The notes under the pieces are model-generated. The model saw only the letters and a list, made by a program, of their open reading frames with translations, was not told where the DNA came from and did no database searches. From Dermabacter indicis (lineage in GTDB: Bacteria > Actinomycetota > Actinomycetes > Actinomycetales > Dermabacteraceae): 64,000 bases of DNA. Below are positions 20,207 to 38,295 of this stretch, one piece after another (the first letter of the stretch is position 1; every line of letters starts with the position of its first letter). Location: positions 217,969 to 281,968 of the forward strand of contig CYUG01000017.1 of NCBI GenBank assembly GCA_001403775.1, read 5' to 3'. A program made the position numbers and the translations under genes.

Positions 20207-20238
20207 GGTCGTTATACGAGATCCTCGAGGCGCCCTCG

Positions 20239-21237
20239 TCATCCTCGCTTAGAAAGTTCGAAGCTTTCGAAGCCTTCGAAGCCCGCAAAGAACCGCGAGA
20301 GAGCGATCGCAGGGGCGTCACGTTCATCTAACTGATCCTCGTGACCTGCAACAATGTGCTCCCATACCGCCGTATCCTCAGCGATCGCTTTTCGGGCACC
20401 ATCCTCCATGCGGCCACGTACATGTTCGGGAGTGTCCGCGGGCGCTCCAATCACGACACGAATGCGAGAAACAAGGTCTCCTCCACGCGCCTCAAGTGGC
20501 CGCAAACCCGAGGTGATGACGACCGACGGAGAGTCGTCATCAACGAGGTGAGTCGCGACGAGATGGGGTGAATGTGCGACCGCACGAAACGGCGAGGCGT
20601 AGCCCGCACGCCTCTTGACGTGTACGTCGGATCCGACCATGCGCTGGATCGCTTCGCGAATCTCCACGGAGGCAAAAGGATCGAGAACAGTTTTGAACGC
20701 GCTCGTCACCTGCAGCGCGCCGCCCTCAAGCGTTTCAAGCACGGGATCGTCGAGATCCGGCACATGGTGGACCTCACGAAAGTGTTCCGGGTCAAAAGCG
20801 TTTTCGACAACCCAGTGACCGGCAACTTTGACGAGCATATCGACAGCCTGGCGGAAGACCCAGTCCCGATAGGGTGCGACATCACTCGCAAAGCCTCGAT
20901 CATCAGCGTCGTCGCCCGCAAGCACATAGATGGCATCGCCGAGCCGCACAGACGTGCGCTTCGCCACCGCAATGTCGCTGCCTTCACCCTCGACGAGTCG
21001 AATACGGCGTCCATGGAACGGACAGGTCACACATCCCTTCGATAGCTTGCCACCGAAGGCGAGGTGGCTACCTCGGTGCGGGCATGCAGCATCGTACACA
21101 TTGATCTGATCCTGCTCTCGCACGAGCATGAGCGCAACACCCGCCGCATCGACAGGGGCGATCTCAACATCCTCAACCTCGCTTACCATTCCGGCAAAAA
21201 TCCATCCGCGGGGTGCGGGTTGCAGCATGGTCGACAT
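20239..21237 (-). CDS. Rieske [2Fe-2S] non-haem iron oxygenase-like tailoring enzyme
   Basis: A 332-aa protein. The Rieske cluster is bound by CPHRGSH (Cys52, His54) and CPFHGR (Cys72, His75). The C-terminal catalytic part has the D-x2-H-x4-H mononuclear-iron motif in FDPEHFREVHH (about Asp149, His152, His157), so it looks like a complete Rieske oxygenase alpha subunit and not just a ferredoxin. The ATG at 21237 has AGAGGA upstream; an upstream in-frame extension has no ribosome site. It is the last gene of the minus-strand operon of the RiPP cluster. It may hydroxylate or demethylate the peptide. No dedicated reductase is encoded nearby. Confidence 0.85.
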   Translation of the reverse strand: MSTMLQPAPRGWIFAGMVSEVEDVEIAPVDAAGVALMLVREQDQINVYDAACPHRGSHLAFGGKLSKGCVTCPFHGRRIRLVEGEGSDIAVAKRTSVRLGDAIYVLAGDDADDRGFASDVAPYRDWVFRQAVDMLVKVAGHWVVENAFDPEHFREVHHVPDLDDPVLETLEGGALQVTSAFKTVLDPFASVEIREAIQRMVGSDVHVKRRAGYASPFRAVAHSPHLVATHLVDDDSPSVVITSGLRPLEARGGDLVSRIRVVIGAPADTPEHVRGRMEDGARKAIAEDTAVWEHIVAGHEDQLDERDAPAIALSRFFAGFEGFESFELSKRG

Positions 21238-21259
21238 GAGTCCTCTTTTCCTTGATGTT

Positions 21260-22498
21260 TTATACGGCGGAATCAGAAAGCCTCGCACCGCACACCCTCG
21301 CTACATATGATGCGGCGCGCGCAGAGGCGTGAAACGTACGTTCAAGGAGGCTCGTGCCAGCCGGATCAATGTCCGTCGCCCACGCGATCGGACCATTGGG
21401 TTCAAGCCAAGCCCGGCAGGCGTCGGAACTCGCACTCGCAAGCGGAAGGCCACCAAACGTGTACCGGTCTCTCCCCCAATCCTTCACAGTGATGCGAGGT
21501 TCAGATCCGACTCTCACCTCTGGAAAACTGGCTGCGACCTCCCGCGAAACGGCACGCAACGCCTCTGCGTTGGCAAGGCGCGACGCACTCGGGCCCTTTG
21601 CCGTCACGGTGAAATGCGAGCTACCCGCGAACCCAAGTACAAGACACGGAGTGGACTCAGGATCGGCGACGTACGCGAAGATGGTACGCGGCAGGGGCGT
21701 GCTGGTTCCGACGGTAGCCACGCACACATTCGCGCTGCCTAGTTCTCGAGCGAGTTCGGCGCGCTCAGGACCAGCGTCGAGCACGCCATGGGCGACGACG
21801 GGGGGCGGGACGGTAATGATTGCCGCGCGCGCCTTGAGAATTTCTCCTCTCGCAAGGGTGACCTGCACGTGCCCTTGCGAATCTGACCGAACTGCGACCA
21901 CCGGGCAGTTGAGGCGTACGTCGAGGCCATTTCGGAGCGCTTCGGGAAGTGCAGACATGGCTGGCTTCAGCACCTCCTCGTCGCGACCGTGGTAGGCATA
22001 GATTTCCTTCGTGTAAGCGATCGATGCCGTGGTACGCGGGTCTCCCGTCACTTGCGTATACCACCCCTCAAGGATTCGCGCTTCACCCGGGGTCCTTGCG
22101 AGAGCTCCCGCGCTCGCACCATTCGGAAAGGCGCGACCCAAGAGTGGGTAGGCGGCCTTCGCCAAGCTTGCGAGCGCGATCGGAGAATCTGGGCCGTCAA
22201 ACGCTCTGGCTTCACCGTCCATGATCCACAGCGCGGTCTCATCGCCTCTCGTCTGATGAGAAGTTTCGATTCCCAAATCTTGCTGATTCAGGAAACTGGT
22301 GAGCGCCGGAGCCGGCCCAGAGAGAACCGTGCAGCCAAGTTCTCGCCCGCCTGAAGTAGTGCATATTCGACCGCCGATCCGGTCGCGCGCTTCCAGCAAT
22401 GCAACCGACAGGCCTACCCGAGACAGCGCACGGCCCGCATTCAGCCCCGCGAGCCCCGCGCCGACGATGACAATATCCGAGCATGAGCGGGTGGTCAC
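21260..22498 (-). CDS. FAD-dependent amine-oxidase-family oxidoreductase
   Basis: About 412 aa. It has the N-terminal dinucleotide fold IVIVGAGLAGLNAGRALSR followed by ALLEARDRIGGR, the second FAD contact, and a C-terminal WATDIDPAGTSLLERTFHAS motif that closes the FAD site in monoamine-oxidase/protoporphyrinogen-oxidase-like enzymes. The chosen GTG at 22498 lies just before the Rossmann motif, with AGGAG about 10 nt upstream and 13 nt after the permease stop. In the cluster it is a likely oxidative tailoring enzyme acting on the modified peptide; the substrate is unknown. Oxidation at a C–N bond is the family norm. Confidence 0.8.
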   Translation of the reverse strand: MTTRSCSDIVIVGAGLAGLNAGRALSRVGLSVALLEARDRIGGRICTTSGGRELGCTVLSGPAPALTSFLNQQDLGIETSHQTRGDETALWIMDGEARAFDGPDSPIALASLAKAAYPLLGRAFPNGASAGALARTPGEARILEGWYTQVTGDPRTTASIAYTKEIYAYHGRDEEVLKPAMSALPEALRNGLDVRLNCPVVAVRSDSQGHVQVTLARGEILKARAAIITVPPPVVAHGVLDAGPERAELARELGSANVCVATVGTSTPLPRTIFAYVADPESTPCLVLGFAGSSHFTVTAKGPSASRLANAEALRAVSREVAASFPEVRVGSEPRITVKDWGRDRYTFGGLPLASASSDACRAWLEPNGPIAWATDIDPAGTSLLERTFHASARAASYVARVCGARLSDSAV

Positions 22499-22511
22499 GA
22501 CAGTAAAGCTC

Positions 22512-23345
22512 CTAGCGCACGCGCGGTCCGCGCCAGCGGAACACGAGGCACGTGAGAACCATGCCAAGAATGGTCCACCCGCCAAGCATGACCGCAATCA
22601 TTGGTAGATCCCATATGCCACCCGTCTCGGTCACCTTGAACTCATCGGGAAGAAAGACGTACCGGTAGCCGCGGCATAGCCACGCGAGTGGGAAGGCGAG
22701 CGCGATCTTCTGCAGGAGCTCCGGGAGGAGATTGAACGGGTAAAACACACCCGAAATGAACTGCAGCACCATAAAAGGCGGCGTCACGATCGCGGAGGCA
22801 CTTCGAGCATTTGGGATGAGCGCCGTGTAGGCGATCCCCGCGAGCGAACACGACGAGACGCCGAGAGCCGTCACCCACGCAAGCACTCCCCATCGCATCA
22901 GATCACTAGGAAGTGGCAAGTGGAACACCACCACTGCGAGGATCATGAGGATCGCGACCTCCACGACTGTGGTCACGACGACGCGCACGACCTTGCCGAT
23001 AAAGTACGCCGAACGCGGCATAGGCGACGCGGCGATGCGGCGGAGCAGACCCATTTCCCGCTCAAGGGCGACATTGATCGCGAGTCCCGTAAACGACGTC
23101 GCCATCACACCCGAGGCGATAATGCCCGCGAGGAATACCTGCTTGAAGTCGACATTTGTGCCTTCAATTTTACCTTTGAAGATCATGCCGAACACGAGCA
23201 TGAGAAGCACAGGAAGCGCAAGTGTAAAGACGAGCGACTGCTTATTCCGGAAGAACGAAGCCATTTCAGCCTTCGTTCGAACTGCGCTTGCGGGCCCGAG
23301 CCCAGGGAGTTTGCGCGTAGAGGTTGTGGATTGTGCTGCACTCAT
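22512..23345 (-). CDS. ABC-2 type transporter permease
   Basis: A 277-aa membrane protein with six predicted helices and the ABC-2 layout: a first helix after FFRNKQSLVFTLALP, a large extracellular loop, then ERE-MGLLRRIAASP and the conserved FISGVFYPFNLLPELLQKIALAFPLAWLCRG-type segment near the C-terminus. Its ATG overlaps the stop of the ATPase gene (ATGA), so the two form one exporter. In RiPP clusters such pairs often pump the mature product out and give self-protection; here a separate peptidase exporter is also present. Confidence 0.88.
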   Translation of the reverse strand: MSAAQSTTSTRKLPGLGPASAVRTKAEMASFFRNKQSLVFTLALPVLLMLVFGMIFKGKIEGTNVDFKQVFLAGIIASGVMATSFTGLAINVALEREMGLLRRIAASPMPRSAYFIGKVVRVVVTTVVEVAILMILAVVVFHLPLPSDLMRWGVLAWVTALGVSSCSLAGIAYTALIPNARSASAIVTPPFMVLQFISGVFYPFNLLPELLQKIALAFPLAWLCRGYRYVFLPDEFKVTETGGIWDLPMIAVMLGGWTILGMVLTCLVFRWRGPRVR

Positions 23346-24328
23346 GCGGCCTTCTCCTCGGTGTTGTTCTCGGTCGCGGACTCGTCTTTGTGAAGAAGCG
23401 CGAGGTAGGTATCCTCAAGCGTCGGCCTCGCGACCGTAAGCCCGGGAATCTCGTCAAATCCCGCGCGGTCAGCCTGCTCGAGGAGGCCCCGCAAAACCGC
23501 GGTCGGGTGGTCCGTAGCCCACGAGACCCCTGAACCGTCGCGCACGAGCTCCTTCGCCAGATTCGGGTCGGTCGCATCCGGAAGTCGCAATTCAGGGCTC
23601 GTGGTGGAGATCCTGTGGCTGAAACCCGCGACCCGAGAGAGCTCTTGAACCGTGCCCTCTACGAGGATTCGGCCCCGAGCGATGACACCCACGCGATCCG
23701 AAAGCTCCTCCGCCTCATCAAGGTAGTGGGTCGTAAGGATAACGGTCGTGCCCATCTGCTGCACGGTGCGAATCAAGTCCCATGCTTCACGACGCGCTTC
23801 TGGGTCCAGGCCCGTTGTTGGCTCATCGAGGAACACGAGCTCCGGCTTGCCCACGAGACCTACCGCAACATCGAGGCGATGCTTCTGGCCACCGGAGAGG
23901 TTGGTGCACATGGCTTTCGCCTTCTCGCCGAGTCCCACGGCAGAAATGACCTCCGCGGGCTCCCACGAATTCGGGTAGAACGTGGCGAAGTGCTTCACGA
24001 CCTCTGTCACCGTAAGGTCAAGGTATTCGGCGGTCGTTTGAGGAACAACGCCCACGCGAGCGCGAAAGCCACGCTCAAACTTGCCTGGATCGTATCCGAG
24101 CACATTCACATCGCCCGAGGTTCGATTACGCGCGCCGCAGAGAATTTCGATTGTCGTTGACTTGCCCGCGCCGTTGGGGCCGAGAAGCGAGTACACCTCG
24201 CCGCGCTTAATATCCAGGTCGATTCCGTCAACAGCGGCAAAATCGCCGTACGTTCGCCTGAGATTCTTGACGAGGATCGCGCTCTCACGCTCATGCGCGG
24301 ATTGCTCCTCGAAATGGTCGCGCGTCAT
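23342..24328 (-). CDS. ABC transporter ATP-binding protein
   Basis: A 328-aa ATPase with Walker A GPNGAGKST, Q-loop VVPQTTAEYLDLT, signature LSGGQKHR, Walker B LVFLDEPTTGLD and switch His in TTHYLDEAEEL. It is of the CcmA/DRR type that pairs with ABC-2 permeases. The C-terminal 90 residues form the extra regulatory domain common in drug-export ATPases. The gene lies 171 nt after the RiPP precursor, behind a strong hairpin, and overlaps the permease gene. Confidence 0.92.
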   Translation of the reverse strand: MTRDHFEEQSAHERESAILVKNLRRTYGDFAAVDGIDLDIKRGEVYSLLGPNGAGKSTTIEILCGARNRTSGDVNVLGYDPGKFERGFRARVGVVPQTTAEYLDLTVTEVVKHFATFYPNSWEPAEVISAVGLGEKAKAMCTNLSGGQKHRLDVAVGLVGKPELVFLDEPTTGLDPEARREAWDLIRTVQQMGTTVILTTHYLDEAEELSDRVGVIARGRILVEGTVQELSRVAGFSHRISTTSPELRLPDATDPNLAKELVRDGSGVSWATDHPTAVLRGLLEQADRAGFDEIPGLTVARPTLEDTYLALLHKDESATENNTEEKAA

Positions 24329-24434
24329 CGGAGTCCTTCCGCTAGGTATGCAATTTGATCATTGCGGCCCCGTCGTTGAAGCGGCAAGGAGAACACATGC
24401 GCAGGCTAGGCCGATTAACGAACGAGATACGTAT

Positions 24435-24476
24435 GCGATGCGTACGGCACCCCACGTTGGGAACCGTACGCATCGC
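24435..24476 (-). terminator. Strong hairpin between precursor gene and exporter genes
   Basis: A 13-bp perfect stem (GCGATGCGTACGG / CCGTACGCATCGC) encloses 16 nt that can add a small CCC/GGG stem. On the minus-strand transcript it starts 23 nt after the precursor stop. No U-run follows, so it is more likely a partial terminator or an RNA-stabilising 3' structure that keeps precursor mRNA above exporter mRNA than a full stop. Confidence 0.6.
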
Positions 24477-24499
24477 GCTACTGCGCGAAGAGCAGAGGC

Positions 24500-24880
24500 T
24501 CAGGTGCAGCAGCAGCAGGGGCAGCAGCAGCAGTTGACGTCGCCGCCGGCAACAGACTCAAGGTCACTCATCTCGAGGTCCTTGACATCCACGCGCGGGG
24601 TGGCAGGCACGTACACGATGACCTCGCCGGTCTCCTCGGCGGCGGTCCAACGCTCGTACTGCTTGTCGAGGCGCTCCTGCGGAGCGAGCCCTGCCTCGGG
24701 GCCCTCCGCCTCACGGACGACCTTCACATTGACGCCTTCCGGAACCTCGAGACCAGCCTCGGCGAGAGCGGCGCGGGGGTCCTTATCGAGCTGCTCCGAG
24801 AATTCCTCGCTCGACCATGCATTGACGAGAACGCGCGTGTAGGCGTTCACGAACTCCTGCTTGTCTTGTTCGTTTGACAT
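24500..24880 (-). CDS. NHLP-family azole RiPP precursor peptide with eight-cysteine core
   Basis: A 126-aa precursor. Residues 1 to about 75 match the nitrile-hydratase-alpha-like leader of NHLP precursors (helical start, DPRAALAEAGLEVPEGVNVKVV). The leader ends DLESVAGG with hydrophobic residues at -4 (Val), -7 (Leu) and -12 (Leu), the usual double-Gly signal for C39 peptidases. The predicted core, residues 114–126, is DVNCCCCPCCCCT: eight Cys in two blocks around Pro121, ending in Thr126. Cys are the substrates of YcaO cyclodehydratase, so up to eight thiazoles plus a methyloxazole are possible. All Cys codons are TGC. The ATG has GGAGG at ideal spacing. First gene of the minus operon. Confidence 0.93.
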   Translation of the reverse strand: MSNEQDKQEFVNAYTRVLVNAWSSEEFSEQLDKDPRAALAEAGLEVPEGVNVKVVREAEGPEAGLAPQERLDKQYERWTAAEETGEVIVYVPATPRVDVKDLEMSDLESVAGGDVNCCCCPCCCCT

Positions 24881-25305
24881 GTCACACCTCCATTTAGGGA
24901 ATGCTTAGGTGGCTTTCAGCCATAGTTTTGGTCAGTGCCCCGGCACGAACTCCATGCCCGCTCCGAAAGGCCTAGGGCTTCACACGAGGCGATCGCCCAA
25001 ACATGCACATCGCGGCGAACTCGAGCTTGCGACTCTCGCTCACATCGCCTCCAGCTTGCCGATCTGCCCCATGCGGAGCGCAAGGCTCAACCGCACCGAG
25101 AGAGTGCGTAGGCAGGTACGCAGAACTGTGCTCAGCCCACTACTCACTGAGATGCGCACAGAGCCACGCACCCCTACCTAGGCACACTGCGTTTTCCCAC
25201 TACATCGAAGTACGCACACCTTCGGTCACGGTAAGCATTGATACTTCTACACCCGGCTTTTGAGGATGGAGGCACAAAGTCATCCCCCGTCAAGCGAGGA
25301 GAGCA
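24881..25305. promoter_or_regulatory. Divergent control region of the RiPP cluster
   Basis: A 425-bp interval between the precursor (minus) and the hydrolase operon (plus), with no convincing gene. It must hold both promoters. Inverted repeats seen are TGGCT-N3-AGCCA at about 24910–24922, GTGCC-CC-GGCAC at 24935–24946 and TGCGTA-N6-TACGCA at 25105–25122; the last looks most like an operator. Clear -35/-10 pairs could not be assigned by eye. Confidence 0.55.
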
Positions 25306-26136
25306 GTGTCGCGTTCGAAAAGTCGCCTCCACGCCGTCGTGCGCCCGGCAAAAGCTCCAGCAACTATCACGTCTCAAGCCCGCACCATCACGTGGCTTCA
25401 CGGCTACACAATGTCCTCCGAGATCTGGACTGACCTGTGGGATCTCTTTCCTGACTGCACACACGTGGGCGTCGATCTTTGGGGTCACGGCGCAAGTCCA
25501 GATTTCCCCAAGGGCGCTACCTTGCGCGACCTCGCGGAAGCGGTGCTTGAGGTGGTGGCTGAGAACGAGTCAGGAGATCTCGCCGCTCTGAGTTTCGGAA
25601 GTGAGGTAGCACTTGAAGCCGCGATCGTTGCGGGCGATACTCTCGACACCCTAATCGTGGGGGCGCCAACAATCGCGGGCCGCTCCGACTCACCTGAAGC
25701 CGCGACCCGCATGCGCGAGCTCATGCTTATGAACCGCATTGGAGCAGATCACTCGTTGCTCGCCGAACGCTGGATGCAAGAGCCACCGGAGATTTTTACT
25801 GGGGCGCGCAACCACCCTTATCTCTTCGAAAGTTTGCGACGCATTATTGAGAAGCACACCTGGTCTGAGATCGCTTCAGGTTCCATGGCGCGGATCCAGC
25901 ATGCGTCACACGATGACCGCGACCTTGCGACGATCAAAGCCCGCACTCTTGTCCTCGTAGGCGATGCCGACATGCCACAGTTCGTGCGCAATGGAGCCAC
26001 GCTCAAGCATCTGATCCCCGGGGCCATGCTCGAGACAATCACCAAGACAGGGCACCTTCCCTTCCTTGAAGACCCCGCACAGTGCGCGTCCTACATTCGA
26101 GATTTCCTCCGATCAGAGAGGGGGAGCCATGCGTGA
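25306..26136 (+). CDS. Alpha/beta hydrolase of the RiPP cluster
   Basis: A 276-aa alpha/beta-hydrolase-fold protein. The oxyanion region is LHGYTMS, the nucleophile elbow is ALSFGS (Ser96; the usual first Gly is Ala), the acid is probably Asp in LVGDADMP, and the His is in KTGHLPFLEDP. The catalytic triad therefore looks complete. The GTG start has GAGGAG upstream. It is first in the plus-strand operon and overlaps the P450 gene. It could cleave or close the peptide, act as a repair or release esterase, or take part in self-resistance; nothing in the sequence decides this. Confidence 0.8.
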   Translation: MSRSKSRLHAVVRPAKAPATITSQARTITWLHGYTMSSEIWTDLWDLFPDCTHVGVDLWGHGASPDFPKGATLRDLAEAVLEVVAENESGDLAALSFGSEVALEAAIVAGDTLDTLIVGAPTIAGRSDSPEAATRMRELMLMNRIGADHSLLAERWMQEPPEIFTGARNHPYLFESLRRIIEKHTWSEIASGSMARIQHASHDDRDLATIKARTLVLVGDADMPQFVRNGATLKHLIPGAMLETITKTGHLPFLEDPAQCASYIRDFLRSERGSHA

Positions 26137-27430
26137 ATCCAGCCTCGGCGATCTTTCACTCTCCACGGTGCGCGATTCCCCCTTGCAGTTCCTCATGAAA
26201 ACCACCCGCCTCTCTGATGGAATCGTCGACGTCTTGCGCTACAAAGTGGACGGCCACAGCGTGGTGCTTCTCAATCACCCCGATCTCGTCCAGGGTGCCC
26301 TTCGGTCAAACAGCCGGGTCATGTCAAAGCAACACACACCTGACGAAGCCATGCTCGCGCCGCTTCTCGGTGACGGACTTCTTACGGCAACCGGCGAATC
26401 CTGGCGTCGCCAACGGATCGCACTCGCGCCGCTGTTTCGGCGCGCCCGCGTCGCTGCTTTTGATCACGTCATCACCGATGCGGCTGATGAACTGATCAGT
26501 TCATGGCGCAGTTCCATCATGAAAAAGTCAGAGACCCGAGTCGAGCATGAGCTCTCGAGCTTCACCTTAAGCGTCCTCGTGCGTGCCATCTTCGGTATGG
26601 ACCTTCCGCAGCTTGGTACCGGATTCGGCTCGGCTGTTCAGGATGTCAACGCACGGCTCGGACACGGCGATCCACGTGCGGGGGACGCAACTTCGAATCT
26701 TGCCTATGAGCGAGCAGCGACCATCCTCCACGGTATTACCGATGCGCTCATTGCTGCGTTCGGTGCAGGTGCGAACTCGTCGGTTGCTTTCCTCAACGGA
26801 CTCAAGCAGGCCCAGAACGGACACGAGATTCACGATCAAGTGCTCACACTCATCATGGCCGGGCACGAAACCACGGCCAAAGTGTTGTGCTGGGCTCTCC
26901 TTGAACTCGGTTCCCGGCCCGACCTCCAAGAGGCGCTCGAGCACGAGGCACGCGCTGTCGCCCAGGGAGGGGTACTGAAAGCCGAGCATCTCCCTCACCT
27001 CAGTCTCGCCGGCAAGGTCTTTCGAGAAGCGCTTCGGCTCCACCCACCGATTTGGCTCATGTCGAGGACCGCCACGGAGAACCTCGATCTGAATGGGTGC
27101 AAGCTCAATACCGGAGAACTCGTGACCTTCAGCCAGTATCTACTTCATAGGGATCCACGCTTTTGGGCAGATCCGGACATTTTCGACCCAAAACGCGAGA
27201 ATGCATCTCACCAATTCGCTTACTTTCCATTCGGCGGCGGCGAGCGCCTGTGTATTGGTCAACACCTCGCGGAGCTCGAAGGAATCCTCACTCTCGCAAC
27301 TCTCTCAATGCACCTTCGGTTCGGGCGTTCCGGGCCGATGCCTGATCCCGAAGCCCTGGTCACGTTACGCCCGATCGACGGTGGGAAACTCACGATCGAT
27401 CACGCGAAGGCGGAGGTGGGTGCTGCATGA
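26129..27430 (+). CDS. Cytochrome P450 of the RiPP cluster
   Basis: A 433-aa P450 with all hallmarks: I-helix IMAGHETTAK, K-helix FREALRLHPP (ExxR), and haem loop FGGGERLCIGQ with the proximal Cys at about residue 374. No membrane anchor is seen, as usual for bacterial P450s. The ATG at 26129 overlaps the hydrolase stop by 8 nt with GAGAGGGGGAG upstream; the 4-nt overlap at the end couples it to the methyltransferase. The expected role is oxidation of the modified peptide. No ferredoxin is encoded in the cluster, although the Rieske protein is a second redox enzyme there. Confidence 0.93.
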   Translation: MRESSLGDLSLSTVRDSPLQFLMKTTRLSDGIVDVLRYKVDGHSVVLLNHPDLVQGALRSNSRVMSKQHTPDEAMLAPLLGDGLLTATGESWRRQRIALAPLFRRARVAAFDHVITDAADELISSWRSSIMKKSETRVEHELSSFTLSVLVRAIFGMDLPQLGTGFGSAVQDVNARLGHGDPRAGDATSNLAYERAATILHGITDALIAAFGAGANSSVAFLNGLKQAQNGHEIHDQVLTLIMAGHETTAKVLCWALLELGSRPDLQEALEHEARAVAQGGVLKAEHLPHLSLAGKVFREALRLHPPIWLMSRTATENLDLNGCKLNTGELVTFSQYLLHRDPRFWADPDIFDPKRENASHQFAYFPFGGGERLCIGQHLAELEGILTLATLSMHLRFGRSGPMPDPEALVTLRPIDGGKLTIDHAKAEVGAA

Positions 27431-28254: not shown

Positions 28255-28294
28255 CAGTCCAAACCAACTAAAAAAACACCACAAAGGAGAAAAG

Positions 28295-28480
28295 ATGAAC
28301 AAGAACCTCAAGATGTTCATTTCGATATTCCTCTTTATTACCGCTGCTGTGGGCATCGTGCTCATGGTTGTCAATCTCCTCGCACAGCCCGCGGCGGTGA
28401 CAACGGGGATCATCTTCGGCTGTGTCGGTGTCGCCGCACTCGTCGCCGGCGTCCTGCTCAACCGCGGTCAACGTTGGTAA
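28295..28480 (+). CDS. Small two-helix membrane protein, possible immunity factor
   Basis: 61 aa: a short Lys-rich start, one hydrophobic helix (about residues 8–30), a small loop with Gln-Pro, a second helix (about 36–54) and a basic end NRGQRW. The ATG at 28295 has AAAGGAGA at good spacing; the longer frame from 28235 lies inside the methyltransferase end. It sits between the methyltransferase and the YcaO gene. I do not recognise a family. Small membrane proteins inside bacteriocin operons are often immunity proteins, so that is a reasonable but unproven idea. Confidence 0.7.
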   Translation: MNKNLKMFISIFLFITAAVGIVLMVVNLLAQPAAVTTGIIFGCVGVAALVAGVLLNRGQRW

Positions 28481-28512
28481 GAGCCTCTTTCCCGACATCT
28501 CCAAGGAGTGAC

Positions 28513-30792: not shown

Positions 30793-30823
30793 ACGCCGAC
30801 CGCTCTCCCGAAAAGAGAACTCT

Positions 30824-32266
30824 GTGACCTTCGCAGCCCCCACGACGCAAGAGGCCCCCACGCTCGCAAGGGCGTACTGCCTCCCCTCACGGCATCGCCT
30901 TGATCCAGATCGCGGACCGCGCGTGCGGCTCAGCCTCCCCGGTGCGGAGCGGATCATCCCTGCCGCGACCGACGCAATCGCGGTTGCGTTGCTCGCCCTC
31001 AACGCTGGCCCGGCGACCACCTCTGCTCTCACCCAGACAATCCTCGAGAACGCTCAGGGTGTCGAGGCTCTGAAATCGGCAAGCTCGCTTCCGACGGTTC
31101 TTTTACTCCTCACGAGGCGGGGCGTCTTGCACGAATGTCTCATTGACCATGAGGGGGCCCTGGTCGCGGAACTTCGACACAAGGGGCGAATTCAGGTCCC
31201 CGACGCGTCGAAGGAAGGCACGGCCGGTGACGAGGAGCCGTCGGAATTGGATCCGCGCACTGTCATGAGACGCGAGGTGCGGGGGCAGGGTGGTCACTCT
31301 GTCAAGGGATGGGTGGCTGACGTTGGCCTCGCCCGCGCGAGTCTGTGGGTCTCAGAAGCGCTTCCGGCCACCAATCCACAGGCATGGCCAAAGGAAGTCC
31401 TCGAATTTGCGGAACGCGCGGGGATTCTTTCAAGCACGGAAGTAACCGATAACTGGCCGTGGTGGGATGCAGTTGACCTGCTGTTTCACGAGCGTACGCG
31501 TGAGGCGAGCAGTCAAGGTGCGTATGGCGGCACCCGCCCCCATGAGGGCTCAGGTCCACGTGCGGCGTGGAAAGAAGCTCGCGTTCTAGAACGGGTTAAG
31601 CTTCCGGTCCCCCGCTCTCTTCCCGCAATCACACTCGAAACTGCTATGGCTCAGCGGCATTCAACACGCACGTTTGACGGAGCAATCACAATCGACGAGC
31701 TCAGCGACCTGCTCGGCCACACGGTTCGTGCTCGACGCGTGTTTCGTGATGACAAGGGCACCGAGGTACTCGATAAGTCAGTGCCCGCAGGAGGATCCAT
31801 TCATGAAGGAGAAACCTGGGTGGCAGTCCACTCGAGTGCGGTGAAAGAAGGAACATTGAGTGCCGGCCTCTGGCACTATGACTGCCTCACTCACACGTTA
31901 GAGCAAATCGCAGGAGCTCAAGGGGCCGACGCTCTCCTCGCCAATACCGCGGCCATGAGCGTGGGCGATGCCCCGCCCATGACAGTCCTCCAGACCGCGC
32001 GTTTCGCACGACTCATGTGGAAATACGAGTCGGTCGCCTACGGTCTCATCCTTAAACACACTGGGGTGATTCACGAAGCTATGCAGCTCGTTGCCACTTC
32101 CCTCGGTCTCGGGACATGCGTGCTCGGAGGCGGCGCCACCTCACTTTTCTCTGAAGTTACGGGAATCGATCCGCATGTCGAAGGTGTCGTAGGTGAGATG
32201 ACTCTTGGGCGAGTTTCGACTGCCAAAATTGCCAAGGATTCGGATGACGAAGGAGACGCCTCATGA
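30824..32266 (+). CDS. SagB-type azoline dehydrogenase
   Basis: 480 aa. The C-terminal 210 residues are the FMN nitroreductase fold with QRHSTRTFDG (FMN phosphate contact), PAGGSIHEGETWVAV and MWKYESVAYGLILKHTG. The Lys400–Tyr401 pair matches the Lys–Tyr pair known to be essential in the microcin B17 dehydrogenase McbC. The enzyme oxidises azolines to aromatic azoles. The N-terminal 250 residues are a partner domain seen in long SagB proteins. GTG start with AGAGAA upstream, 31 nt after the YcaO gene. Presence of this gene means that mature product should contain thiazoles and not only thiazolines. Confidence 0.9.
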   Translation: MTFAAPTTQEAPTLARAYCLPSRHRLDPDRGPRVRLSLPGAERIIPAATDAIAVALLALNAGPATTSALTQTILENAQGVEALKSASSLPTVLLLLTRRGVLHECLIDHEGALVAELRHKGRIQVPDASKEGTAGDEEPSELDPRTVMRREVRGQGGHSVKGWVADVGLARASLWVSEALPATNPQAWPKEVLEFAERAGILSSTEVTDNWPWWDAVDLLFHERTREASSQGAYGGTRPHEGSGPRAAWKEARVLERVKLPVPRSLPAITLETAMAQRHSTRTFDGAITIDELSDLLGHTVRARRVFRDDKGTEVLDKSVPAGGSIHEGETWVAVHSSAVKEGTLSAGLWHYDCLTHTLEQIAGAQGADALLANTAAMSVGDAPPMTVLQTARFARLMWKYESVAYGLILKHTGVIHEAMQLVATSLGLGTCVLGGGATSLFSEVTGIDPHVEGVVGEMTLGRVSTAKIAKDSDDEGDAS

Positions 32267-33036
32267 TGTATCGCTTCAGGGCGCTCGCCAAGCAACGTGA
32301 CCCCGACGAACTCGACTCCCCGGTCGTCCTCGCGTCGCCTCGTGGCTGGGTAGCAGTCTTCGTCTGTCTTTTCGCAGTCGTCGCGGTGATTAGCTGGGGA
32401 ATCGCGGGGCGACTTCCGATGTCAGTTGATTGCTCCGGGTCACTGGTCAATCCAGGTGGCACGATGGGCATCTCCAGCAACGTCTCGGGCACCGTGGCAG
32501 AAGTCCTCGCCAAACCTGGTGATGTCATCGATAAAGGTGACGCAATCGCCACCATCATCACGGGGAATGGACACGAGCAGAAAGTTGAGGCTCCGTCGAA
32601 AGGGCGAGTGACGTCGCTCTCCCTCTCCGAGGGAGGATTCTTGCAGCAGGGTGCTGAAGTAGCGGTCCTCGAAAAGGATTGGAAACCAAACCAACGCTTG
32701 GTGGCGGAAGTGCTCGTGCCCGCGAGCGACATTAGCCGTGTGGAACCCGGGCAGGAAGTGCTTCTCAGCGTCTCTGGCGTCAATCCCCGGCAATTTGGGA
32801 TGCTTGTAGGGCACGTGCGTAATGTCGCTCCATTCCCCATTGAACAGGCAGGAACCGGCGCCGAAGTTCCGCCGACACTCGTCACGATCGAACTCGATGA
32901 GCGTTCCTCCACGCAAAGTGGGTACGCCTGGACAAGCACAAGCGGTCCTCCCCAACCACTTCATACACAGACCGAGGTGCAGGCGGAAATCCGCTTGGGC
33001 ACCGTTGCCCCGATTAGCCTGCTCTTCCAGGGGTGA
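32263..33036 (+). CDS. NHLM export system HlyD-like adaptor
   Basis: A 257-aa membrane-fusion-type protein. It has a cytoplasmic N-terminus, one membrane helix (about residues 29–48), then a biotinyl/lipoyl-like hairpin domain (SNVSGTVAEVLAKPGDVIDKGDAIATI, and a second half VEAPSKGRVTSLSLSEGGFLQQGAEVAVLE). It resembles the NHLM bacteriocin secretion protein that always accompanies the NHLM peptidase transporter. ATGA overlap with the dehydrogenase gene and GTGA overlap with the next. In a Gram-positive cell it would extend from the membrane next to the transporter. Confidence 0.87.
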   Translation: MMYRFRALAKQRDPDELDSPVVLASPRGWVAVFVCLFAVVAVISWGIAGRLPMSVDCSGSLVNPGGTMGISSNVSGTVAEVLAKPGDVIDKGDAIATIITGNGHEQKVEAPSKGRVTSLSLSEGGFLQQGAEVAVLEKDWKPNQRLVAEVLVPASDISRVEPGQEVLLSVSGVNPRQFGMLVGHVRNVAPFPIEQAGTGAEVPPTLVTIELDERSSTQSGYAWTSTSGPPQPLHTQTEVQAEIRLGTVAPISLLFQG

Positions 33037-35189
33037 GCATCATGGCAAAGACTGCAACCCCCACGCTTCTTCAAATGGAGGCGTCCGAGTGCGGCGCTGC
33101 AAGCCTCGGTATCATCCTCGGCTACTACGGTCGGCACGAACCTCTCGAGGATCTCCGTATCGCTTGCTCGGTCACGCGTGACGGAGCCAATGCCGCGAGC
33201 ATCGTCCGCGCCGCTCAAAGCTACGACCTCGAAGGTGGCGGCAAGCTCGCCGATACTGACGATCTCGCCCAAATCGATCATCCGGTGATCATCCATTGGG
33301 CCTTTCAGCACTTCATGGTTCTCGAAGGGGTCAAGGGCAAGGGCAAGAACCGTGTCGCGCGAGTGAATGATCCGGCGATCGGTCGCCGACTCATCGCGTG
33401 GCATGAAATCGAAGAGTCCTTCACGGGGGTCGTCATCGACCTTGTTCCTGGCGAGGGTTTTGAGAAACGGGGCGCACCGGTGCGGCTTGGGCCCGATATT
33501 GTCGAGCGCGTCACCCAGTCCGGCCGCTCCCTTATCCTTGCGTGCCTCGCTACTCTCATCATGATCGTTCCGGGACTTGCGGCACCTTTCATTGCTCGTC
33601 TTTGGATCGATCGCGGTAGCGATCTGAGCAGCTGGGTAATTCTCGCTCTCGCCCTCGCGGTTGTGCTCAGTGCTCTCATGGCCCACGTGCAGCTTGTCCA
33701 GCTTCGCCGCTCAGAAGCTCGGCTCACACTTTCCGGAACCACGCGGTTTCTCCGCGGTCTTTTGCGAAAGCCCATGGCATTCTTCCTCCAGAGGAACCCT
33801 GGCGACCTCACCGAGCGCCTCATGAGCAATTCCCGCGTCGCTCAAGTCGTGATTCGCGAGGTGGTCGTGACTGTCTCCTCGCTCCTTCTCGTCATTTCCT
33901 ACGGGTTCACGCTTTTCATTCTTGACCCGCTCATGGCTCTCGTGTGTGTGGCATCGTCTGTCATCCAGATTTTTCTTCTGCGCCTCCTCCTCACGAAACA
34001 GCACGATGCTATGCAAGCGCTCCTCGCAAAAGAAGCTTCTCTCGCGTCGTCCACAATGCAGTCAATCGGCGCCATCACTTCAATCAAAGGTAATGGCCTC
34101 GAGGATTCTGCATTCTCTCGTTGGTCGGGTTTCCTCGCACACTGCACGCGCGAGAATCAGCGTTTGAGCGTCATGCTCGCCCAGATCACTCTCGCACCGA
34201 CTCTACTCACGAGCCTCACCACTGCGATCATTGTGATCGTGGGCGGCACGCGGCTCCTCGACGGCGCATTATCGATCGGTCTTCTGTTCGCGTTTCTCAC
34301 GATTTTTTCGTCGTTCAGCGCACCCGTTCAACAACTCATAGGACAAGCCTCGAGGCTCCAGAATCTGGATGCGGATATGCGGCGGCTTCGAGACGTTACT
34401 GACTACGCCGACGACGAGGTGTGGGAGACGAGTCCCAGTTCGGAATCGGTCATGCTGAGCGGCGCTCTCGAACTTCGTAACGTCACGTTCGCTTTCGATG
34501 GAAACGTGCCATTCCTCGAGGATGTCTCGCTCATCGTCCGACCTGGCTCACGCGTCGCACTCGTCGGTTCCTCCGGCTCTGGTAAATCCACGCTGGGGCG
34601 CATCATTGCGGGCCTCACTTCGACGACGAGTGGTGAGGTCCTTCTCGACGGGAAAGCACGCGAAGATCTCGACCCTCATAGCGTCACACGCGCGGTGGCC
34701 TACATCGACCAGTCGATCACCCTTTACGGGGGTACCGTTCGCGAAAACGTGAGCCTCTGGGACGATTCAATCGAGGAGAAGTCCCTCATCGCTGCGCTCG
34801 AAGACGCTGAGATCCTCGACGAAGTCAATCAACGTGCTGGTGGTCTCGACGCACACGTTGCAGACGGGGGGAAGAATTTCTCGGGAGGGCAGCGCCAACG
34901 CCTCGAGCTCGCTCGGGCACTCACTCAAAACCCTAGTCTGGTGATCCTCGATGAAGCGACGAGCGCGCTGGATCAACGCACCGAGGCCTCGATCATGGAC
35001 AACCTTAAACGCCGAGGTTGCACCCTCGTGATTATCGCTCACCGGCTTTCAACCGTGGTCGACGCCGACCGAATCGTCGTTCTCGATCACGGAAAAGTGG
35101 TGGAGAGCGGTCATCACCACGACCTCATCGCTCTCGATGGTGCCTACGCATCGCTTTATGCTCATGCCGACGAGGAGCAGCCTGCATGA
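33033..35189 (+). CDS. NHLM peptidase-containing ABC transporter (leader removal and export)
   Basis: A 718-aa bifunctional transporter. The N-terminal C39 peptidase has Cys20 in QMEASECGAAS, His93 in FQHFMVLEG and Asp113 in VNDPAIGRR. Six membrane helices follow (about residues 155–430), then an ATPase with VGSSGSGKST, FSGGQRQRLELARAL and VILDEATSALD. It should cut the precursor after its GG and export the core. Starts are GTG 33033 (overlapping the adaptor stop) or ATG 33042. It forms a set with the adaptor before it and the second ABC transporter after it, the usual NHLM trio. Confidence 0.93.
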   Translation: MSIMAKTATPTLLQMEASECGAASLGIILGYYGRHEPLEDLRIACSVTRDGANAASIVRAAQSYDLEGGGKLADTDDLAQIDHPVIIHWAFQHFMVLEGVKGKGKNRVARVNDPAIGRRLIAWHEIEESFTGVVIDLVPGEGFEKRGAPVRLGPDIVERVTQSGRSLILACLATLIMIVPGLAAPFIARLWIDRGSDLSSWVILALALAVVLSALMAHVQLVQLRRSEARLTLSGTTRFLRGLLRKPMAFFLQRNPGDLTERLMSNSRVAQVVIREVVVTVSSLLLVISYGFTLFILDPLMALVCVASSVIQIFLLRLLLTKQHDAMQALLAKEASLASSTMQSIGAITSIKGNGLEDSAFSRWSGFLAHCTRENQRLSVMLAQITLAPTLLTSLTTAIIVIVGGTRLLDGALSIGLLFAFLTIFSSFSAPVQQLIGQASRLQNLDADMRRLRDVTDYADDEVWETSPSSESVMLSGALELRNVTFAFDGNVPFLEDVSLIVRPGSRVALVGSSGSGKSTLGRIIAGLTSTTSGEVLLDGKAREDLDPHSVTRAVAYIDQSITLYGGTVRENVSLWDDSIEEKSLIAALEDAEILDEVNQRAGGLDAHVADGGKNFSGGQRQRLELARALTQNPSLVILDEATSALDQRTEASIMDNLKRRGCTLVIIAHRLSTVVDADRIVVLDHGKVVESGHHHDLIALDGAYASLYAHADEEQPA

Positions 35190-38053
35190 CTCTTGTGAAA
35201 TCCAACTCGACAACGACCACGAATCGGCAAGAGATCACCTGGGAGGGGGGCATTTTCGTACTCAGCGCTCCCCGCATGAACCTTCTGGTCGAGGCCGGAA
35301 CGATCGATGTCTTCGGTGTCCCGCTCGACGACGATGAGCCGCGAGGGGCGTGGGTATCTCTCGGTCGCCTCGAAGCGGGAGACATTCTTACCGGGCCCGC
35401 TTCGGGACCTTTCCATTCATTTGTGTGCCGCCCGCAGCATGACTCGAGTGCCGTTCTGATCAGCCCGGATGATGACTCGCTCTCTGCCGATGAGCTCCTG
35501 CGTGGGGTCCAAGGCGCGCTCTCACGACTCACGCCCCCACTAAGCGATGCTCTTCCTCCCCAGGACTTCGACCCTGTTGAAGCGGGCAACACCGTGGAGC
35601 TAAAGTCAGGTCGCCCCGCGCGACCCGTCGATGGCACGGTATGGATGAAGCGTCTCGAGGGCAGTCTCGAGGGGCACGGAGCCGCCGCATGGTCCTACAG
35701 CACTGACGACTGGTTCTGTGTTCGCCGAAACGATTGGGTTACGGCGACATCCGGTACGTCCCGGCTCACGGTTATCGACACGGAAAGACTGCTCACCGAA
35801 CCAAATGCCTCAGCGATCCTCGCTATCCATTGGACCCGCTTCCTTTACGGGGTCGACCGTGCTGCCGAACGAACGGCCTCTCGGCGACGCAGCGCAATCG
35901 ATGATTCGCGCCATCGCGATGCTATAGCGCTCGGCGAGATTCGCGACGCCGCAGATCTTATAGCACTTGAATCCGAGGGGCGCACAACCCACCCCTCCGA
36001 TCGGACTGGATATCTGACCGCAGTCTTGCGCGCCTTCCACCGCGACCCGTCAGTACGTGAGGTCCCGGCTCAGCTCATCCCAGCGCTTTCAAAATGTCAA
36101 TCCTTCGGTGAACTGAGTGGCGTGGGATGGATCCGTTTGAGGATGCTTCGCCTCGAAGGTAACTGGTGGAATGAATCTATGGGACCTCTCGTGGGAACGT
36201 GGGGGCGCGAACGCACGCCGGTCGCTCTCGAGCCTAACGACGGCGGCTACATCGCGTGGTTCCCTCAGGAAAGCGAGCCCGTGCGGGTCACGGGCGAAAA
36301 TCACACGAAACTGCGCCGCACGGCGTTCGCTCCATATCCGGGGATCAGTGCGGGCACCAGCCTTCGCGGCCTGTTTGGGTTCGGCATGAAAGGTGCCCGA
36401 GGCGACATGGTGCGCCTCATACTCACAACTGTACTCGTGGGCGCCGTCGGAACCCTTCCCCCGCTTCTCACCGGCACCGTTCTAGGCGCTCTCGCCGAAC
36501 GAGGCGAGCGCAACCTCATCATTCTCGCGGGACTGTGCTTGATCCTGACTGCGGTGGTTGGAGCCTCGCTTCAACTCACGCAGGTACTCACATTGCACAG
36601 GCTTCGAGGGCATCTTGGAGAACGTACGGGCACGGCGCTGTGGATGCACCTGTTACGCCTTCCCGTGGGATTTTTTGAAAGGGAGGCCCCGGGAGCTCTC
36701 GCCACCGTCGTGCTTGGCCTTCGCCGCGCACAAGAGCAGATCTCAATGGCATTTTCTTCGCTCCTCCCCCTTGCGGTGGTCGGAATAGCAAACACGATAC
36801 TGCTGTGGTGGATCTCGACCTCACTTGCATTTCCTGTCACTTGCGTTCTTCTAGTCTGCTTGGTTCTCACCGCTGTTCCGGCACGGCGTGAGCTCAAGCA
36901 TCGTGCGACCGCATTCGAGGTAGAGATGGAGCTGAAGGCACTCTCCTACTCGCTCCTGCAGACCATGCCAAAGCTACGCGCTGCCGGTGCTCAGATGCGC
37001 GCGCTCACCCGCTTCGCAGCCGTACAGCGCCGCCAGGTTGAGCACCTCATGAAGGCGCAAAGTGAGAACGATAAGATCGCCACTTTCGCTGCACTCTTGC
37101 CGACTCTCTCGATACTCACGGTTGTCGCCTCTGGTTCGCTCATGCACAGAACACCCCCGACACAGGATCTCCTATCTTTCCTCGTCGCACTCGGAATCGT
37201 CACGAACTCACTCGCCCAGGTCCTCAAATCCTTCGCACTCGTGTCTCCGGCAGTTCCCCAGCTATCGGCGACTTACGCGATTCTCGATGAACTTCCGGAA
37301 ACTGGGCCCGACCAGGTGCAACCAGGCGACCTTTCCGGCGCGGTCGCCTTCTCGAACGTATCGTTTAGATATCGAAGCGACGGCCCGCTCGTGCTCGATG
37401 GCATCAATCTCGATGTCGCTCCAGGTGAGTTCATCGGCATTGTTGGACCGTCTGGCTCCGGAAAATCGACACTTATGCGCCTCATTCTCGGATTCGACCG
37501 ACCGACCCAGGGAAGCGTACTTCTCGACGGTCAGGACCTTTCCGAGCTCGACGCGGCGGCAGTTCGTCGCCAGTTCGGCATTGTTATGCAAGACACCGAT
37601 GTCATGCCTGGCAGTATCCGCGAGAACATCATTTCTTCGGGCTCCTTCACTGATGACGATGTATGGGAGGCCGCAGAAATGGCCGGTATTGCCGATGACA
37701 TCCGAGATATGCCGATGAAGCTCGCAACCCGTGTCTCCCCCGGTGGCGAAGGGCTATCTGGTGGTCAGCGCCAACGCCTGCTTATTGCGCGCACGCTCAT
37801 CTCAAAACCACGCATGATTCTGTTCGACGAGGCGACGAGTGCGCTCGACAATCCCACGCAGGAGCGGATCACCCATGCGATGCGCCTCATCAACGCTACC
37901 CGCATCGTCATCGCGCACCGACTCACAACCGTACGTCACGCCGATCGCATCGTGGTTGTCGACAAGGGAAGAATTGTCGAGCAAGGCACCTATGACGAAC
38001 TTCTTGAGCTTAACGGGGTCTTTGCCGAACTCGCCCGTACCCACGAGCAGTAG
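35186..38053 (+). CDS. NHLM ABC transporter permease/ATP-binding protein (no peptidase)
   Basis: 955 aa. The long N-terminal part (about 1–430) has no C39 peptidase; it holds an N-terminal barrel-like segment (PRMNLLVEAGTIDVFGVPL) and unassigned sequence, as in the second ABC protein of NHLM systems. Membrane helices lie at about 455–710. The C-terminal ATPase has GPSGSGKST, LSGGQRQRLLIARTL and LFDEATSALD. ATGA overlap with the peptidase transporter suggests a heterodimeric exporter. It is the last gene of the cluster; a weak GGGAAG/CTTCCC hairpin follows at 38072–38091. Confidence 0.9.
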   Translation: MTLVKSNSTTTTNRQEITWEGGIFVLSAPRMNLLVEAGTIDVFGVPLDDDEPRGAWVSLGRLEAGDILTGPASGPFHSFVCRPQHDSSAVLISPDDDSLSADELLRGVQGALSRLTPPLSDALPPQDFDPVEAGNTVELKSGRPARPVDGTVWMKRLEGSLEGHGAAAWSYSTDDWFCVRRNDWVTATSGTSRLTVIDTERLLTEPNASAILAIHWTRFLYGVDRAAERTASRRRSAIDDSRHRDAIALGEIRDAADLIALESEGRTTHPSDRTGYLTAVLRAFHRDPSVREVPAQLIPALSKCQSFGELSGVGWIRLRMLRLEGNWWNESMGPLVGTWGRERTPVALEPNDGGYIAWFPQESEPVRVTGENHTKLRRTAFAPYPGISAGTSLRGLFGFGMKGARGDMVRLILTTVLVGAVGTLPPLLTGTVLGALAERGERNLIILAGLCLILTAVVGASLQLTQVLTLHRLRGHLGERTGTALWMHLLRLPVGFFEREAPGALATVVLGLRRAQEQISMAFSSLLPLAVVGIANTILLWWISTSLAFPVTCVLLVCLVLTAVPARRELKHRATAFEVEMELKALSYSLLQTMPKLRAAGAQMRALTRFAAVQRRQVEHLMKAQSENDKIATFAALLPTLSILTVVASGSLMHRTPPTQDLLSFLVALGIVTNSLAQVLKSFALVSPAVPQLSATYAILDELPETGPDQVQPGDLSGAVAFSNVSFRYRSDGPLVLDGINLDVAPGEFIGIVGPSGSGKSTLMRLILGFDRPTQGSVLLDGQDLSELDAAAVRRQFGIVMQDTDVMPGSIRENIISSGSFTDDDVWEAAEMAGIADDIRDMPMKLATRVSPGGEGLSGGQRQRLLIARTLISKPRMILFDEATSALDNPTQERITHAMRLINATRIVIAHRLTTVRHADRIVVVDKGRIVEQGTYDELLELNGVFAELARTHEQ

Positions 38054-38255
38054 CCTCGGACAACCAGCGAAGGGAAGCTTCGGCACTTCCCAGGCGATAC
38101 TCACCGTAAGCTTTGAGATTCGACGGAGTGAAGGTGCCGTCGGGCGTCCGGCTCATGTCTTGATTCGCGAACGCGCGCGATATCGCTCCCGCTGAGACAA
38201 ACTTCCCGACCCTTACGACATTCTTCCGGCCGCCGCTGACCAGTGCAATCAAAAA

Positions 38256-38295
38256 GCATCGCCCCCGTTCGCACACGGACGAACGGGGGCGATGC
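38256..38295 (-). terminator. Terminator of tRNA-Ser(GCT)
   Basis: GCATCGCCCCCGTTCG pairs perfectly with CGAACGGGGGCGATGC (16 bp, 8-nt loop). On the minus strand it is followed by TTTTT and lies 7 nt after the tRNA end. Confidence 0.92.

What the first reader, a model, noticed from the sequence alone, without database searches (positions are those of the whole stretch)
20239..38053. Azole RiPP cluster with an NHLP leader and an eight-cysteine core
Precursor 24500–24880 carries a nitrile-hydratase-like leader, ends in GG and has the core DVNCCCCPCCCCT. A fused YcaO cyclodehydratase and a SagB dehydrogenase are present, so the core should become two blocks of up to four contiguous thiazoles separated by proline, possibly with a terminal methyloxazole from Thr. 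By hand, the free core is about 1368.3 Da (monoisotopic) and each azole removes 20.03 Da, so eight azoles give about 1208.1 Da before tailoring. I do not recall a characterised product with this core, though that is memory and not a search.
Basis: partly seen in the sequence, partly recalled or inferred. Interest (0 to 1): 0.93.

Follow-up and report, generated by a model that had tools for sequence, protein, structure and literature searches.

The report
Hinged eight-cysteine azole peptide cluster
A bacterium with a 2.2-million-base genome carries a 20.7-kb gene island, missing from two sister genomes, that encodes a small peptide whose tail is four cysteines, a proline, four more cysteines and a threonine; the neighbouring enzymes are predicted to turn those cysteines into rings and export a likely antibiotic, and peptides with nearly the same tail are scattered through many genera of actinobacteria.

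Summary
Observation confirmed and extended. The precursor (24500-24880, minus) has a nitrile-hydratase-like leader, a GG site and the core DVNCCCCPCCCCT; YcaO, SagB and an NHLP-type exporter with C39 peptidase accompany it.

What the tools add. (1) The core is not a one-off: 141 of 143 related precursors retrieved end in a heterocyclisable block, Pro and a second block. At seven positions flanking Pro, 980 of 980 cells in 140 proteins are Cys (902) or Ser/Thr (78), just what azole formation needs. (2) The cluster is more tailored than stated: P450, Rieske oxygenase, flavin amine-oxidase-like enzyme, alpha/beta hydrolase, methyltransferase, DrrAB-like exporter and LuxR-type regulator. Counterparts of the 14 genes other than the regulator recur in 5 of 5 same-class clusters with the closest YcaO, 13 of them on one contig of a metagenome-derived actinobacterium. 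(3) It is a 20.65-kb island (17648-38301) abutting tRNA-Ser, absent from two sister genomes.

The family is sparse in any genome sample. No paper in the held library contains this core. Best reading: a scattered, conserved family of linear polyazole peptides, a new variant of the NHLP/TOMM kind. Product and activity are untested.

The parts
17648..38301 (.). 20.65-kb gene island holding the whole cluster
   Evidence: G001 and G003 align to the window up to 17647 and 17638 and resume at 38301 and 38302, with about 170 and 180 bases between, so the stretch is absent there. G+C 59-62% from 20 to 38 kb against 63% on the left, but 60-62% just to the right, so composition alone is weak. Longest direct match between the ends searched: 10 bases
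17783..20206 (+). large LuxR-family (LAL-like) regulator, 807 aa, C-terminal GerE helix-turn-helix
   Evidence: PF00196 47.5 bits; long regulators lie beside the cluster in 5 of 5 same-class relatives, alike (56-63%) over the HTH only
20239..21288 (-). Rieske oxygenase (KshA-like C-terminal domain)
   Evidence: PF00355 and PF19298 above cut-off; CxH...CxxH and DxxH....H stretches in 6 of 6 aligned copies
21260..22597 (-). flavin amine-oxidase-like oxidoreductase (true start probably downstream of 22597)
   Evidence: PF01593 123 bits; solved relatives are amine oxidases and demethylases, weak and mostly in the FAD-binding part
22512..23345 (-). ABC-2 exporter permease, DrrB-like
   Evidence: PF01061; TIGR01247 59.5 bits, below cut-off 223
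23342..24328 (-). ABC exporter ATPase, DrrA-like
   Evidence: PF00005; TIGR01188 drrA 243 bits, below cut-off 312
24420..24500 (-). strong stem-loop directly after the precursor stop codon, before the exporter genes
   Evidence: -43 kcal/mol, z -5.4, 0 of 200 shuffles as stable; no like hairpin was evident in the downstream stretches of the five same-class relatives
24500..24880 (-). precursor peptide: NHLP leader ending GG, core DVNCCCCPCCCCT
25306..26136 (+). alpha/beta hydrolase; Ser and His of the triad conserved, acid uncertain
   Evidence: PF12697; motif alignment of 6 copies: the Asp in line is Ser in three of them, with another acid two residues on
26066..27430 (+). cytochrome P450 (ATG at 26129 is the likelier start)
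   Evidence: PF00067 193 bits; heme-Cys, AGHETT and ExxR stretches in 7 of 7 aligned copies
27427..28254 (+). SAM-dependent methyltransferase
   Evidence: PF08241 and others
28235..28480 (+). small hydrophobic (by eye) protein, 81 aa
   Evidence: weak homologues (48-60 bits) next to the methyltransferase in six related clusters
28474..30792 (+). fused leader-binding + YcaO cyclodehydratase (ATG at 28513 gives the 759-aa form P0088)
   Evidence: TIGR03604 and TIGR03882 above cut-off; LynD 1e-138, MusD 1.8e-133, TruD 3.3e-132; active-site stretches aligned
30824..32266 (+). SagB-type azoline dehydrogenase
   Evidence: TIGR03605 117 bits, above cut-off 78; CyaGox 1e-30 and McbC 4e-4; WKY in 8 of 8 aligned copies
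32263..33036 (+). HlyD-like NHLP secretion adaptor
   Evidence: TIGR03794 128 bits, below cut-off 156
33033..35189 (+). NHLP-type ABC exporter with C39 peptidase
   Evidence: TIGR03796 796 bits, below cut-off 853; PF03412 above cut-off; Q, C, H and D residues in 7 of 7 aligned copies
35018..38053 (+). second NHLP-type ABC exporter, permease/ATPase (ATG at 35186 is the likelier start)
   Evidence: TIGR03797 625 bits, below cut-off 709
38302..38392 (-). tRNA-Ser(GCT) whose 3' end is the right edge of the island

Best explanation
This 20.7-kb island encodes a ribosomally made peptide ending CCCCPCCCCT together with enzymes that are predicted to turn its cysteines into two runs of up to four thiazoles hinged by proline, to oxidise and methylate the product further, and to cut it from its leader and export it as a likely antibiotic. 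Steps: (i) the folded NHLP leader would dock on the leader-binding domain of the fused YcaO enzyme through its L(X)4L motif; (ii) YcaO would cyclodehydrate the Cys residues with ATP and SagB would oxidise the thiazolines to thiazoles; (iii) the P450, Rieske oxygenase, flavoenzyme, hydrolase and methyltransferase would tailor the peptide, at unknown sites; (iv) the C39 domain of the NHLP exporter would cleave after GG during export; (v) the DrrAB-like exporter would protect the producer. Shown here: gene content, conserved active-site stretches, conservation of core and cassette, and island status. Inferred: every chemical step, their order, and the activity.
For: Leader: TIGR03793 in 36 of 36 alignment members at E<=0.001; AlphaFold model whose highest-probability match among the 50 shown is the solved proteusin precursor 8tb1 (0.98; 1.7 A over 44 columns), nitrile hydratases filling most of the top; L(X)4L in 140 of 143 precursors, a motif shown to matter for MprC/MprE7 (PMC12455567, passages). 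Azole chemistry: YcaO matches LynD, MusD and TruD at 3.3e-132 or better; SagB matches CyaGox and McbC. Core under selection for azole formation: 980 of 980 cells at seven positions in 140 precursors are Cys, Ser or Thr. Cassette: counterparts of 14 of 14 genes in 5 of 5 closest clusters (G927, G905, G1006, G754, G932), each with a LAL-type regulator beside it; 13 of 14 on one contig of the metagenome-derived genome behind L002. Export and protection: NHLP exporter with C39 residues, and a DrrA/B-like pair beside the precursor.
Against: No product, expression or activity data. The window precursor falls just below TIGR03793's cut-off, as do the three NHLP exporter components for their models. 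All Foldseek E-values for the leader exceed 0.001. 91 of 143 leaders end AAG-like, 44 GG-like, so C39 cleavage is less certain family-wide. The YcaO C-terminus is NPRGVFF, not the PxPxP I recall as usual for azoline-forming YcaOs. Tailoring enzymes are only 27-46% identical between clusters, so they need not make identical products; the six relatives have a second P450 that the island lacks, and the window-type P450 was not found on the L002 contig. More distant YcaO-bearing clusters (G347, G997, G749) show none of the tailoring genes in the stretches read. The antibiotic role rests only on exporter pairing.
Confidence: 0.8

Rival explanations
1. Same polyazole peptide, but it works as a metal chelator or a signal between kin rather than as an antibiotic: rows of thiazole nitrogens bind a metal, and the near-invariant core reflects a shared cellular role.
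For: The core varies less than I would expect of an antibiotic under an arms race; a conserved copper-binding RiPP is reported in Microbulbifer (PMC12538549, title and start of abstract in the listing).
Against: No metal-uptake or metal-sensing gene recognised among the 15 island genes; a DrrAB-like exporter pair fits self-protection better.
Confidence: 0.25
2. A streptolysin-S-like membrane-active cytolysin, since SLS-type cores also have runs of heterocyclisable residues.
For: Contiguous Cys-rich core; the permease also matches the SagH model weakly (52.7 bits, cut-off 450); Cox 2015 describes contiguous heterocyclisable cores for cytolysins (PMC4603692, passages).
Against: Cyclodehydratase is fused and LynD-like, not discrete; no CaaX-type protease recognised among the 15 genes; long NHLP leader.
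Confidence: 0.05
3. The Cys run is a triplet-repeat artefact in a non-functional ORF.
For: All eight core Cys codons in the window are TGC, and mostly so in relatives.
Against: The same core with Pro in register recurs in 140 proteins, with Ser and Thr swaps; TGT codons occur in some relatives; the precursor sits in the same cassette in six relatives.
Confidence: 0.01
4. The azoles are partial: only some of the eight cysteines cyclise, and the rest form other links or are consumed by the P450, Rieske or flavoenzyme steps.
For: Several oxidative and hydrolytic enzymes are conserved in the cassette.
Against: At seven positions Cys is replaced only by Ser or Thr, which keep azole but not disulfide or metal-thiolate chemistry.
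Confidence: 0.2

Closest known systems
NHLP-type TOMMs / proteusins (Haft, Basu and Mitchell 2010, PMC2887384, passages read)
   Same: Long nitrile-hydratase-like leader without the CxxCSC metal site, Gly-Gly end, cyclodehydratase and dehydrogenase, linked ABC export system.
   Different: That paper stresses hypervariable cores; here the core is nearly invariant across the precursors retrieved, and a P450, Rieske, flavoenzyme and hydrolase set travels with it.
MprC/MprD with MprE precursors (NHLP azole system, PMC12455567, passages read)
   Same: YcaO plus FMN dehydrogenase install thiazoles on an NHLP precursor carrying L(X)4L.
   Different: Ten precursors; the construct core described there is GGPACAAK; no CCCCPCCCC core in the passages read.
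Nostatin A (Nostoc azole proteusin, PMC11583998, passages read)
   Same: NHLP leader, YcaO (NstD) and azoline oxidase (NstE).
   Different: 30-residue Ser/Thr-rich core; its epimerase and LanM-like genes have no counterpart among the 15 island genes.
Cyanobactin enzymes LynD, TruD and CyaGox
   Same: Closest solved homologues of the YcaO and SagB proteins.
   Different: No PatA/PatG-like protease-macrocyclase recognised in the island, and an NHLP leader instead.

Membership tests
NHLP (proteusin-type) RiPP precursor | Leader related to nitrile hydratase alpha subunit | tested here: met
   TIGR03793 at 4e-13 (49.0 bits, cut-off 50.9, so just under) and 36 of 36 family members at E<=0.001; model resembles 8tb1 and nitrile hydratases, E-values weak
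NHLP (proteusin-type) RiPP precursor | NHase CxxCSC metal motif missing | tested here: met
   No Cys before the core in the precursor
NHLP (proteusin-type) RiPP precursor | Leader ends in Gly-Gly cleavage motif | tested here: met
   AGG in the window; family-wide 44 GG-type, 91 AAG-type and 8 other of 143
TOMM / linear azol(in)e peptide | Precursor-linked YcaO cyclodehydratase with leader-binding domain | tested here: met
   TIGR03604 and TIGR03882 above cut-off; LynD 1e-138
TOMM / linear azol(in)e peptide | Azoles actually present in the product | not testable with these tools
   No mass spectrometry; indirect support from Cys/Ser/Thr-only substitution
NHLM export system | C39-peptidase ABC, second ABC and HlyD adaptor together | tested here: met
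   All three adjacent, each best-matching its NHLM model though below the curated cut-offs; C39 residues present
Cyanobactin | PatA/PatG-type proteases | tested here: not met
   No subtilase-type protease among the 15 genes scanned
Cytolysin (SLS-like) TOMM | Discrete cyclodehydratase proteins and a CaaX-like protease | tested here: not met
   Fused cyclodehydratase; no CaaX protease among the 15 genes scanned
Thiopeptide | Ser/Thr dehydratase and [4+2] cyclase (recalled) | tested here: not met
   Neither found among the 15 genes scanned

The most novel reading that the evidence does not exclude
A natural product never isolated, made by scattered actinobacteria across the phylum: a rigid bis(tetrathiazole) rod bent at one proline, kept almost unchanged between distant genera, decorated by a conserved Rieske, flavoenzyme, P450, hydrolase and methyltransferase set, and passed between lineages as a self-contained 15-gene island.
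Probability: 0.5. Interest if true: 0.8.

Novelty: new variant of a known kind. Interest (0 to 1): 0.66.

Why it matters
NHLP azole peptides are described as having hypervariable cores and few characterised products (PMC2887384, PMC4603692, PMC11583998, passages). Here one core design, a Cys block, Pro and a Cys block, is kept across many actinobacterial genera with a conserved cassette, so a single structure elucidation would explain a whole family. Up to four contiguous thiazoles on each side of a hinge would be an unusual scaffold to my recall, and a search for papers combining four of Rieske, YcaO, thiazole, P450 and SagB found none. The family gives ready mass predictions and several likely hosts to test.

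Tried and rejected
Rejected: triplet-repeat artefact; cyanobactin, cytolysin and thiopeptide membership (see membership test). Integration at tRNA-Ser is unproven: the island's right edge is the tRNA 3' end, but the longest direct match between the ends searched is 10 bases and no integrase was recognised among the 15 genes. The third sister genome, G002, has ppc and serS on different contigs and could not serve for the empty site.

Corrected while checking: I had read the metagenome-derived relative L002 as lacking the tailoring enzymes. Its 22-kb stretch was cut; further along the same contig lie DrrA/B-like genes, a second-type P450, flavoenzyme, Rieske and hydrolase.

Led nowhere: PHROGs scan of the precursor; Pfam PF27793, precomputed for many precursors but not in the held library, so its name is unknown to me; literature strings for the core (0 papers). 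Limits: core statistics rest on 143 proteins (87 plus 56 new of the 120 listed, out of 408). The family is sparse in genome samples: strong precursor hits (E<=1e-16 taken loosely, the weakest at 2.5e-16) in 4 of 396 phylum genomes, own included, 4 of 150 in one family at E<=1e-8, 1 of 148 relatives, own only; the first look scores few candidates, so these are lower bounds. Of 26 genomes with a YcaO match at E<=1e-100, own included, I read 10 of the other 25: G754, G932, G927, G905 and G1006 hold the cassette; G780 holds a CCCCCSSPCCCCT precursor with YcaO, SagB, P450 and MT on a 26-kb contig; G347 holds a CCCPCCCT precursor with azole and export genes only; G749 gave weak precursor matches; G997 and G700 gave none.
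Full report
Observation. The precursor ORF 24500-24880 (minus) is real, has a GGAGG ribosome-binding stretch and ends GG-DVNCCCCPCCCCT. Its leader matches the NHLP model at 4e-13, 1.9 bits under the curated cut-off, while 36 of 36 members of the family alignment match at E<=0.001. An AlphaFold model (mean pLDDT 73; core below 50) resembles the solved proteusin precursor 8tb1 (probability 0.98, rank 2 by E-value) and nitrile hydratase chains, with no E-value at or below 0.001.

Family. A single-sequence search of 5.8 billion proteins gave 87 relatives; those with an organism name include Microbispora, Nonomuraea, Sphaerisporangium, Nakamurella, Nostocoides, Streptomyces, Kitasatospora, Embleya, Yinghuangia and Ornithinimicrobium, all actinobacteria by recall; most entries have no name. 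YcaO relatives at 48% identity include Arachnia propionica. A profile search gave 408, of which 120 were listed. Of the 143 distinct precursors retrieved, 141 end in a heterocyclisable block (Tyr allowed in it), Pro and a second block; the two exceptions are a 108-residue entry without core (P0003) and one with a C-terminal extension (P0258). In the 140 with Pro at position -6, the seven flanking positions (-9 to -7 and -5 to -2) hold Cys in 902 and Ser or Thr in 78 of 980 cells, nothing else. Position -10 is looser (Cys 100, Ser 22, Tyr 16, Thr 1, Ala 1), so some members have a three-residue first block. The last residue is Thr in 124, Ser 7, Gly 7, Ala 2. This is what selection for azole formation predicts and argues against disulfide or thiolate roles. 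The profile does not force it: NHLP precursors with Cys-free or Cys-poor tails were detected by the same model in distant clusters. Caveat: the list is the best-scoring part, clustered at 90% identity, and sequences are related, so cells are not independent. The family is sparse in genome samples (4 of 396 phylum genomes with strong hits, own included; 4 of 150; own only of 148 relatives).

Cluster. The five genomes with the most similar YcaO (44-46% identity), unnamed but of the window's class, all carry counterparts of precursor, DrrA/B-like exporter, flavoenzyme, Rieske, hydrolase, P450, methyltransferase, small hydrophobic protein, YcaO, SagB, HlyD and both NHLP ABC genes, though in a different order, with a long LuxR-type regulator alongside that is alike only in its helix-turn-helix. 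Identities run from 27% (flavoenzyme) to 60% (permease). All five also hold a second P450, 60-78% identical to that of G905, which the island lacks. The metagenome-derived actinobacterium behind L002 has MT, small protein, YcaO, SagB, HlyD, two ABC genes, four precursors in a row, then DrrA/B-like genes, the second-type P450, flavoenzyme, Rieske and hydrolase on one contig; only the window-type P450 was not found on that contig, and a regulator was not looked for there. Its precursors end CCCCPCCCCG (two), CCCCCPACSSCTV and CCCCCC. Active-site stretches: YcaO CEA(I/L)ER in 8 of 8 aligned copies and the TLEEA stretch with small changes (MDEA in L002, which also lacks the second Cys of one pair and both of the other); SagB WKY in 8 of 8; C39 Q/C/H/D in 7 of 7; P450 heme-Cys in 7 of 7; Rieske ligands in 6 of 6; hydrolase Ser and His in 6 of 6 with an uncertain acid.

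Island. In sister genomes G001 and G003, homology to the left flank stops at 17647 and 17638 and resumes at 38301 and 38302, the 3' end of tRNA-Ser(GCT), with about 170 and 180 bases between. G+C is lower than on the left but like the right flank, so composition adds little. No att-like repeat was found at the ends.

Mechanism. LynD, MusD and TruD are the nearest solved relatives of the YcaO protein; CyaGox and McbC are among those of SagB. Work on MprC (PMC12455567, passages read) shows that an NHLP leader is recognised through its L(X)4L motif and helix alpha-1; the motif is present in 140 of 143 precursors. I infer docking, cyclodehydration, oxidation, tailoring, then C39 cleavage and export. 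Tailoring sites and order cannot be read from sequence. The DrrAB-like pair next to the precursor makes an antibacterial role the likeliest, without direct evidence. A strong stem-loop (-43 kcal/mol, z -5.4) sits between the precursor and exporter genes; a 24-pair hairpin follows one precursor of L002, but none like it is evident in the five same-class relatives. It may raise precursor transcript over downstream genes (inference).

Known or new. Haft 2010 (PMC2887384, passages) defines NHLP TOMMs with hypervariable cores; Cox 2015 (PMC4603692, passages) repeats this and shows no such core in the passages read. Nostatin A (PMC11583998, passages) is an azole proteusin with a very different core. 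Spongiicolazolicins (a review, PMC8838263, passages) have 28-29 residues. No paper in the held library contains the core strings. Subscription journals, RODEO, MIBiG and BAGEL could not be searched. I file it as a new variant of the NHLP/TOMM kind.

Noticed in passing
L002 19785-21785: A metagenome-derived actinobacterium carries four NHLP precursors in a row after the same YcaO/SagB/NHLP-export genes, with tails CCCCPCCCCG (twice), CCCCCPACSSCTV and CCCCCC.
   Followed up: partly
L021-L022 (G347), L031-L032 (G561), L033-L034 (G647): Distant clusters pair a CCCPCCCT-tailed NHLP precursor with a second NHLP precursor whose tail has no Cys block; a possible two-peptide system.
   Followed up: partly
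L066-L075 and L084-L088 (G927, G905, G1006, G754, G932) and L109 1919-3010: A second cytochrome P450 goes with the cassette in all six relatives read (40-78% identical to that of G905) but is missing from the window's island.
   Followed up: partly
window 24420-24500: Very stable hairpin right after the precursor stop codon (z -5.4); a 24-pair hairpin follows one precursor in L002.
   Followed up: partly
window 6110-7496: tRNA-Arg beside an integrase-core (rve) transposase-like ORF, a likely insertion element outside the island.
   Followed up: partly
window 38482-40831: Three similar-looking small lipoprotein-like ORFs in tandem between tRNA-Ser and a peroxiredoxin-like gene; sister genomes diverge here.
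   Followed up: no
window 53600-58800: Lower-G+C stretch with few long ORFs and, by eye, a replication-initiator-like reading frame; possibly another mobile element.
   Followed up: no
L065 (Streptomyces cadmiisoli plasmid NZ_CP030074.1): An NHLP precursor with a different tail (KINCQIL) sits next to the NHLP export genes on a 970-kb plasmid.
   Followed up: partly
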